Below are positions 15,945-17,342 of a DNA stretch of 64,000 nt, one piece after another. Source of the DNA: Methanosphaera stadtmanae (GTDB lineage Archaea; Methanobacteriota; Methanobacteria; Methanobacteriales; Methanobacteriaceae). A program made the position numbers and the translations under genes. The notes beneath the pieces are model-generated. The model saw only the letters and a list, made by a program, of their open reading frames with translations, was not told the DNA's origin and ran no database searches. How positions within the stretch are numbered: the first letter of the stretch is position 1; each line of letters begins with the position of its first letter. Location of the stretch: positions 40,631 through 104,630 of the forward strand of contig SUTQ01000006.1 in assembly GCA_015062805.1 (NCBI GenBank), written 5' to 3'.

Positions 15945-16077
15945 TCATTAACTATTCTTTTTTTTAGCAATTAAATACTATAAAAATATTATTATTAATA
16001 ACTTTAATTAAATTAAAATTTTAGCTTCATTTAAATAATAATACTATTTATACAAGTTTTTACAAACATTTAATTAA

Positions 16078-16225
16078 TTCTCAGGGCGAGGTGTAATTCC
16101 TCACCGGTGGTAAAATTATAAGTCCACGAGCTTGAAAAAGTTGATTTGGTGAAAATCCAAAACCGACGGTAAAGTCCGGAAGAGAGAGAATATTTAATTA
16201 TATCAATCTTATTTTTATAGCCCTG
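16078..16225 (+). promoter_or_regulatory. FMN riboswitch (RFN element) with expression platform
   Basis: The conserved RFN core is readable: AGGGCGAGGTG, CCTCACCGGTGGTA, AGTCCACGAGC, GATTTGGTGAAAATCC and ACCGACGGTAAAGTCCGG. The outer P1 stem can form between TTCTC at 16078-16082 and GAGAA at 16186-16190. Downstream GCCCTG at 16220-16225 is the exact complement of CAGGGC at 16082-16087 inside the aptamer, the alternative pairing used as a switch in bacterial ribB leaders. FMN binding should favour the aptamer and reduce ribB expression (established for the class; its action here is inferred). The ribosome site GAGGTAAT and ATG 16260 follow 22 bases later. Confidence 0.93.
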
Positions 16226-16259
16226 TTTCATTTATTAAATATACAAGAGGTAATAATAT

Positions 16260-16892
16260 ATGAATCATGAAGAAATGTTAACAGGAAATTACATTGAACG
16301 TGTCGAGACAGCAGTTGAAGCAATAAAGAATAAAAAAGGTGTAATAGTAACTGATGATGAATCCCGTGAAAATGAAGGAGATATGTTTTTTTCAGCTCAA
16401 CACGTTACAGAAGAACAAATGGCATTATTAATAAGAGAAGGTAGTGGAATAGTCTGTTTATGTATGACTGAAGATAAAGCAGATGAACTAGAATTACCAT
16501 TAATGGTTGAAAACAATACCAGTACCTATGGAACCGGTTTTACCATAACCATTGAAGCTGCAGAAGGTGTTACTACAGGAGTATCTGCTGCAGATAGAGT
16601 AACAACAGTTAGGGCAGCATCAAATGATGGTGCAAAACCTGAAGACTTAAATCATCCAGGACACGTATTCCCATTAAGAGCTAAAAATGGTGGAGTACTG
16701 GAAAGAGATGGTCATACAGAAGCAAATATTGAATTAATGAAACTGGCAGGACTTAAACCTATGGGAGTTTTATGTGAAATAACAAACCCTGATGGTACAA
16801 TGGCAAGAATGCCTGAAATCATTAAATTTTCAAAAGAACATGATATGCCTATCGTAACTATTAATGATATTATTCAGTATTTAACTGAATAA
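16260..16892 (+). CDS. ribB: 3,4-dihydroxy-2-butanone 4-phosphate synthase, bacterial type
   Basis: Converts ribulose 5-phosphate to dihydroxybutanone phosphate and formate for riboflavin synthesis. The 210 residues are a stand-alone RibB without the RibA domain. Active-site marks are [11 protein letters not shown], where the acidic loop binds magnesium, GHTEA, and [20 protein letters not shown]. From memory this last stretch and the [11 protein letters not shown] region are far closer to enterobacterial RibB than to the methanococcal enzyme, whose acidic loop reads differently. Together with the upstream FMN riboswitch this points to transfer from bacteria. Strong GAGGTAAT site before ATG 16260. 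Confidence 0.94.
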
Positions 16893-16943: not shown

Positions 16944-17342
16944 ATGTTCTACGAATGCCTATCTGTAGGATTAGGAGGATTTATAGGTAGTGTTTTACGA
17001 TATCTCCTAGGATTTCTACCAATTAAAGAATCAACCACATTTCCTATAAATACATTTATCATTAATATATTGGGTGCAATATTAATATCCTTCATTGCAT
17101 TTTATATAACCAACAATAATTTATATAACATTAATCCGACAACCCTAAAAAACATTATCTTATTCCTAAAAGTAGGTGTCTGTGGCGGATTTACAACTTT
17201 TTCAACATTTGCCTTAGAAACCGGAGATTTAATTAGAAATGGCAATATTGAAATAGCATTTTTATATGTATTGTTGAGTGTTGTTGTTGGAGTAACTGTA
17301 ATATTTCTACCCGAACTATTATTCGATACTCAACCTATTTAA
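16944..17342 (+). CDS. crcB: Fluoride ion channel CrcB/Fluc
   Basis: 132-residue, four-helix membrane protein that exports fluoride as a dual-topology dimer. Signatures are GGFIGSVLRYLLG at residues 11-23, NTFIINILGA in helix 2, and GVCGGFTTFSTFALE in helix 3, with the phenylalanines that line the pore. GGAGAT precedes ATG. It lies 51 bp after ribB on the same strand, so it may be read through from the ribB promoter. The gap is too short to hold a separate fluoride riboswitch. Confidence 0.92.
   Translation: MFYECLSVGLGGFIGSVLRYLLGFLPIKESTTFPINTFIINILGAILISFIAFYITNNNLYNINPTTLKNIILFLKVGVCGGFTTFSTFALETGDLIRNGNIEIAFLYVLLSVVVGVTVIFLPELLFDTQPI

What the first reader, a model, noticed from the sequence alone, without database searches (positions are those of the whole stretch)
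16078..16892. A complete FMN riboswitch with a bacterial-type ribB in an archaeon
Seen: RFN core motifs, an outer stem, and GCCCTG at 16220-16225, the exact complement of CAGGGC inside the aptamer, as in bacterial ribB leaders. The protein carries the [20 protein letters not shown] block of enterobacterial RibB, not the methanococcal form as I recall it. Known: FMN riboswitches are overwhelmingly bacterial. Inference: regulator and gene moved together from a bacterium, and the RNA may still work in archaeal transcription or translation.
Basis: partly seen in the sequence, partly recalled or inferred. Interest (0 to 1): 0.85.

Follow-up and report, generated by a model that had tools for sequence, protein, structure and literature searches.

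The report
Imported bacterial FMN riboswitch in archaea
A vitamin-B2-sensing RNA switch and the enzyme gene it controls entered gut methane-producing archaea as one package from bacteria of the E. coli kind; in the lineage of Methanobrevibacter smithii the same switch now sits in front of the archaeal gene instead.

Summary
Window 16073-16195 scores 115.5 bits with RF00050 (cut-off 66.2), and GCCCTG at 16220-16225 complements CAGGGC at 16082-16087. The downstream ORF is a RibB of the proteobacterial monofunctional kind, and it is the genome's only DHBP synthase. The window genome belongs to genus g1, which contains Methanosphaera stadtmanae. The element is not unique: 94 of 152 Methanobacteria genomes carry one copy. 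All 32 genomes with bacterial-type RibB have it directly upstream. Those RibBs form one clade inside proteobacterial RibB. The homology runs through the leader into the start codon (GCCCTGATTCT[A/G]GTA...SD...ATGAATCA), so regulator and gene came together. The window genome has lost its native archaeal ribB, leaving a 67-nt gap in an otherwise intact neighbourhood. In the M. smithii group the same leader, with its first codons, precedes the native archaeal ribB at the native locus: the switch was captured by the host's own gene. Likely mechanism: FMN stabilises the aptamer, freeing GCCCTG-TTC to pair with the start codon and repress translation. The start-codon helix covaries; the direction of switching is inferred from bacteria. 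An archaea-only U-tract before GCCCTG may add termination or pausing. No experiment exists here.

The parts
16073..16195 (+). FMN riboswitch aptamer (RF00050), complete, with outer stem P1
   Evidence: 115.5 bits, model 1-138/138
16082..16087 (+). CAGGGC in the aptamer (junction after P1), partner of GCCCTG in the alternative pairing
   Evidence: exact complement found; pairing this way crosses P1, so the two exclude each other (fold)
16212..16216 (+). U-tract (T5) just before GCCCTG; possible archaeal pause or termination site
   Evidence: T-run of 5 or more within 14 nt in 69 of 76 archaeal leaders, 0 of 10 bacterial; background 2-6%
16220..16225 (+). GCCCTG, switching element shared with proteobacterial ribB leaders
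16224..16237 (+). 5' arm of the predicted start-codon helix
   Evidence: MFE fold; the geometry shared by the other genera and bacteria covaries
16246..16251 (+). Shine-Dalgarno-like AGAGGT, 8 nt before ATG, in the loop of the helix
   Evidence: sequence
16254..16267 (+). 3' arm of the start-codon helix, including the ATG and codons 2-3
   Evidence: MFE fold
16260..16892 (+). ribB, 3,4-dihydroxy-2-butanone-4-phosphate synthase, proteobacterial monofunctional type; the only DHBP synthase of the genome

Best explanation
This is a bacterial-type FMN riboswitch-ribB unit that entered methanogens of the Methanobacteria from a proteobacterium and replaced the native archaeal ribB in this organism. 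Shown by sequence: aptamer, expression platform, start codon and coding body are all homologous to proteobacterial ribB, and the native ribB is gone from its conserved locus. Proposed mechanism (inferred): when FMN is plentiful it locks the aptamer and P1; the downstream GCCCTG-TTC... segment is then free to pair with the start codon and codons 2-3 (ATGAATCA), with the Shine-Dalgarno in the loop, and translation of ribB falls. When FMN is scarce, GCCCTG pairs with CAGGGC inside the aptamer, P1 opens, the start-codon helix is weakened and ribB is translated. The conserved U-tract before GCCCTG probably adds an archaeal pause or termination point. In the M. smithii group the same leader, with its first codons, now controls the native archaeal ribB, which shows that the leader is a portable module.
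For: Aptamer 115.5 bits. 94/152 genomes, one copy each. All 32 genomes with bacterial-type RibB have the aptamer directly upstream. RibB clade of g1+g6+g9 100/99 support, nested in proteobacterial RibB; nearest named bacteria are Enterobacterales (66-70% identity), and 13 of 20 bacterial relatives checked carry RF00050 upstream. Bacterial leaders end GCCCTGATTCTGGTA...TTACC-ATGAATCA; archaeal ones GCCCTG[A/G]TTCTAGTA...TTACT-ATGAATCA. Start-codon helix: 86% of cells paired against 25-47% when slid; 17 double changes against 7.1 in shuffles (0/500). The helix loses about half its energy if GCCCTGN is occupied (g10 -8.3 to -3.2, g9 -10.2 to -5.1, bacteria -16.1 to -7.7 kcal/mol). Ligand-free folds favour the GCCCTG pairing by roughly 1-5 kcal/mol on group means. 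Native ribB deleted between two intact neighbours in the window genome.
Against: Folding does not predict that the ATG becomes unpaired in the alternative state (P unpaired changes little), and the two pairings overlap by only 2-3 nt. The window's own helix is one of the weaker ones (-5.2 kcal/mol, z -0.2 against shuffles; a U-U mismatch). The covariation is largely one bacterial-to-archaeal shift, so it is few independent events. No ligand binding or expression data exist for any archaeal member found here. The donor clade is not resolved.
Confidence: 0.8

Rival explanations
1. Control is by archaeal transcription termination at the U-tract rather than by translation: the FMN-bound aptamer favours termination or pausing at T5-8, and the GCCCTG/start-codon pairing is only a bacterial leftover.
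For: U-tract of 5 or more within 14 nt before GCCCTG in 69/76 archaeal leaders, 0/10 bacterial, background 2-6%; archaeal RNA polymerase terminates at U-tracts (own knowledge); the folding evidence for start-codon release is weak.
Against: The start-codon helix, SD spacing and codons 2-3 are conserved down to the captured archaeal genes. Distance from P1 to the U-tract varies from about 5 to 190 nt, so no fixed aptamer-terminator geometry exists.
Confidence: 0.25
2. The riboswitch was ancestral in Methanobacteria and was lost in most lineages; no bacterial import.
For: It is found in 6 of 20 genera, in separate parts of the species tree.
Against: The RibB it accompanies in g1, g6, g9 and g16 sits inside proteobacterial RibB; the native ribB loci scanned in other genera and in g1 have no aptamer; leader and start match proteobacteria.
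Confidence: 0.05
3. Contamination or mis-binning of bacterial DNA.
For: Most genomes are metagenome bins; G025 (g2) has its element on a 3.6-kb contig and a misplaced rpoA1.
Against: The window lies on a 106-kb archaeal contig; the element is in closed single-contig genomes (M. ruminantium M1 2,937,203 bp, M. smithii 1,853,160 bp); the sequences form archaeal clades and are AT-rich.
Confidence: 0.02
4. A relic: the RNA is conserved in sequence but no longer regulates in archaea.
For: One relative in the M. smithii group (G121) has a decayed aptamer but keeps the gene, so loss is tolerated; M. smithii itself has a weakened start-codon helix.
Against: 93 of 94 copies score above the curated cut-off across four well-sampled genera; most of 24 distinct platforms keep the helix; relics in these AT-rich genomes decay visibly, as G121 shows.
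Confidence: 0.1

Closest known systems
FMN riboswitch (RFN element, RF00050) of proteobacterial ribB, e.g. E. coli
   Same: Full aptamer, GCCCTG switching element, ATTCTRGTA arm pairing with the start region, ATGAATCA start, monofunctional RibB downstream.
   Different: Archaeal host; AT-rich shortened leader; a U-tract before GCCCTG; the window has GCCCTGTTTC with a U-U mismatch. E. coli adds Rho termination (PMC10085680); archaea lack Rho (own knowledge).
FMN riboswitch of Methanobrevibacter ruminantium M1
   Same: Same element before the same bacterial-type ribB; found here at 193837-193975 of the 2,937,203-bp genome.
   Different: Leader about 140 nt longer. I recall this hit being listed in the Infernal user guide tutorial; I could not check it in the paper library.
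TPP riboswitches of euryarchaea
   Same: Metabolite riboswitch in archaea; in 2007 the only class known outside bacteria (PMC2258182).
   Different: Different aptamer and gene set.
Archaeal RibB (M. jannaschii type, 1pvw)
   Same: Same reaction and superfamily (PF00926).
   Different: About 32% identity to the window protein; native neighbours ribK etc.; no aptamer outside g10 and g2.

Membership tests
FMN riboswitch RF00050 | Covariance-model score above the curated cut-off over the whole model | tested here: met
   115.5 against 66.2 bits, positions 1-138
FMN riboswitch RF00050 | Conserved core of the binding pocket | tested here: met
   Alignment keeps CAGGGC, CCACGA, GAUuuGGUGAAA, CCGAC and GUCCGGA; the FMN-contact roles (A48, A85, A99 of the F. 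nucleatum structure) are from memory
FMN riboswitch RF00050 | Upstream of a riboflavin synthesis or transport gene | tested here: met
   64 nt before ribB
FMN riboswitch RF00050 | Binds FMN and changes expression | not testable with these tools
   needs in-line probing or a reporter
Proteobacterial ribB-type expression platform | GCCCTG complementary to the aptamer, and an arm pairing with the start codon region | tested here: met
   the helix is weak in the window itself
Proteobacterial ribB-type expression platform | Ligand-dependent exposure of the start site | tested here: inconclusive
   Ligand-free folds favour the alternative pairing by roughly 1-5 kcal/mol but ATG exposure hardly changes
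RibB (DHBP synthase), bacterial monofunctional type | TIGR00506 above cut-off and placement with bacterial RibB | tested here: met
   260 against 177 bits; clade inside proteobacterial RibB
Archaeal-type RibB | Clusters with M. jannaschii / Methanobacteria RibB | tested here: not met
   separated by the longest branches of the tree

The most novel reading that the evidence does not exclude
In vertebrate-gut methanogens an imported bacterial riboswitch became a portable archaeal control module. After entering with bacterial ribB it was captured by the native archaeal ribB in the M. smithii group, keeping its start-codon helix (hence the extra MNQE N-terminus), and it gained an archaeal U-tract so that it acts through archaeal transcription as well as translation.
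Probability: 0.4. Interest if true: 0.8.

Novelty: new member of a known kind. Interest (0 to 1): 0.62.

Why it matters
Natural riboswitches other than TPP and fluoride are little documented in archaea, and none of the papers searched describes an FMN riboswitch in an archaeon. Here a bacterial RNA switch crossed the domain border with its gene, was kept across dozens of gut methanogen species, and in one lineage was re-attached to the archaeal gene. That makes it directly testable whether an RNA switch evolved for bacterial machinery works with archaeal RNA polymerase and ribosomes. It also suggests that flavin analogues such as roseoflavin, or FMN-riboswitch ligands such as ribocil, might act on gut methanogens including M. 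smithii. The element occurs in gut genera from two independent gut colonisations (Methanosphaera, and Methanobrevibacter in the wide sense).

Tried and rejected
Contamination: rejected (closed genomes, long contig). Rfam scan of native ribB loci for hidden FMN elements: none. G121 without aptamer: decayed remnant seen by eye, no RF00050 hit even at E up to 1. Thermodynamic folding to prove ATG release: inconclusive. Aptamer tree to date the capture: too few columns. It groups g1/g2/g6/g9/g10 aptamers together (90/83, unstarred) but puts G142 with proteobacteria (97/86), whereas the RibB tree puts G142 with the archaea (94/86), so a second import into g16 stays open. The route by which the leader reached the native gene (both forms sit next to ribK, but on different sides of it) is not resolved. 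Phylum-wide search added nothing beyond the class; other archaeal phyla could not be searched. Literature: 10 searches, no paper describing archaeal FMN riboswitches found in the held library.

Full report
WHAT IS THERE. The window carries one RF00050 match, 16073-16195 (+), 115.5 bits over the full model, the only one in the genome. GCCCTG at 16220-16225 is the exact complement of CAGGGC at 16082-16087; these are the only two occurrences of GCCCTG in the window, both strands counted. ORF 16260-16892 is a 210-aa RibB, 87 phmmer bits to the M. jannaschii-type enzyme but 309 bits to the enterobacterial one. PF00926 has one match in the genome, so this is its only DHBP synthase.

THE ORGANISM. 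The genome's genus g1 contains a genome of a single 1,767,403-bp contig (G017), the published size of Methanosphaera stadtmanae DSM 3091; likewise G043 is 2,937,203 bp (M. ruminantium M1) and G066 is 1,853,160 bp (M. smithii PS) (PMC6120340 table).

HOW COMMON. 94 of 152 Methanobacteria genomes have one FMN element each, 93 above the cut-off, in 6 of 20 genera: g1 (Methanosphaera, 12), g9 (Methanobrevibacter proper, 15), g10 (M. smithii group, 61), g6 (4), g16 (1), g2 (1, on a 3.6-kb contig and possibly mis-binned). A 2026 phylogeny treats Methanosphaera and the vertebrate Methanobrevibacter clade as independent gut lineages (PMC13135261); the rpoA1 tree here agrees that they are separate.

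TWO KINDS OF GENE UNDER ONE SWITCH. In g1, g6, g9 and g16 the next gene is bacterial-type ribB; all 32 genomes with that protein have the element directly upstream. In g10 and g2 the next gene is the archaeal-type ribB, 40-56 nt downstream. Bacterial-type archaeal RibBs of g1, g6 and g9 form one clade (100/99), with G142 (g16) added at 94/86, inside proteobacterial monofunctional RibB. The g10 RibB is the native archaeal one, nested in Methanobacteria RibB next to g3. Synteny agrees: the native locus is ribK (CTP-dependent riboflavin kinase, PF01982) followed by ribB, near a CobB/CobQ-like gene and a fumarate-reductase-like gene. The g10 element sits between ribK and ribB at that locus; in g6 and g9 the bacterial unit lies in the same neighbourhood and the native ribB is gone; in g1 it lies elsewhere. 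G003 and G004 (g1) still have both genes. The window genome keeps the whole native neighbourhood, but native ribB is missing: only 67 nt separate its former neighbours.

THE LEADER CAME WITH THE GENE. Proteobacterial leaders end GCCCTGATTCTGGTA ... SD ... TTACC-ATGAATCAG. Archaeal g9 leaders end GCCCTGATTCTAGTA ... AAGGAG ... TTACT-ATGAATCA; g10 leaders end GCCCTGGTTCTAGTA ... AAGGAG ... TTACT-ATGAATCAAGAA. The N-terminus MN[QH] occurs in 41 of 44 riboswitched archaeal-type RibBs and in none of the 19 native starts without a riboswitch that were compared; the 17 nt around the start match the g9 form at 16-17 positions in 41 of 44, against 7-13 in native genes. So the captured gene carries the imported start.

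WHY THE START IS KEPT. TGATTCT[A/G]GTA pairs with TAC[T/C]A-U-GAATCA, that is with the start codon and codons 2-3, with the SD in the loop. This is the minimum-energy structure in most leaders. On 24 distinct platforms 86% of cells pair, against 25-47% when the helix is slid by 1-3 columns; 17 double changes against 7.1 expected (0/500 shuffles), mainly G-C in bacteria against A-U in archaea at one pair and a variable outermost pair. Many of these are shared by descent. GCCCTG also pairs with the aptamer, which excludes P1; ligand-free folds prefer that state by roughly 1-5 kcal/mol on group means, and occupying GCCCTGN takes away about half the start-codon helix energy. The folds do not show the ATG coming free, and in the window itself the helix is weak (-5.2 kcal/mol). 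The sign of regulation (FMN represses) is therefore taken from the bacterial homologue (PMC10085680; general sequestor logic PMC2258182), not computed.

ARCHAEAL ADDITION. A T-run of 5 or more lies within 14 nt before GCCCTG in 69 of 76 archaeal leaders and in 0 of 10 bacterial ones, against 2% of other leader windows and 6% of window-wide 14-mers. Since U-tracts terminate archaeal transcription (own knowledge) this may be a pause or terminator; that is inference.

STANDING. The element is an FMN riboswitch by every test that sequence allows. An archaeal case is not entirely new: G043:C1:193837-193975 is, as I remember, the FMN hit printed in the Infernal user guide for M. ruminantium. In 2007 TPP was the only class known outside bacteria (PMC2258182). 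I found no paper on FMN riboswitches in archaea, on their origin, or on the capture by native ribB, in a library that lacks most subscription journals.

Noticed in passing
L085 (G121), upstream of ribB: A g10 genome with a decayed aptamer (recognisable remnants such as ctgatttggtgaaatttcaaac) but the imported SD and MNQ start kept: natural loss of a riboswitch.
   Followed up: partly
L119 (G027, g3): Native riboflavin kinase and DHBP synthase are fused into one 350-aa protein, PF01982 + PF00926.
   Followed up: partly
L068 (G066, M. smithii PS) and L066 (G061): The start has changed to MSKND and the start-codon helix is much weaker than in other members of the group.
   Followed up: no
window 16944-17342: CrcB-type fluoride exporter directly after ribB, without a fluoride riboswitch hit.
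   Followed up: no
L080 (G025): g2 genome has a g10-like riboswitched ribB on a 3.6-kb contig while its rpoA1 branches elsewhere: likely mis-binned contig.
   Followed up: partly
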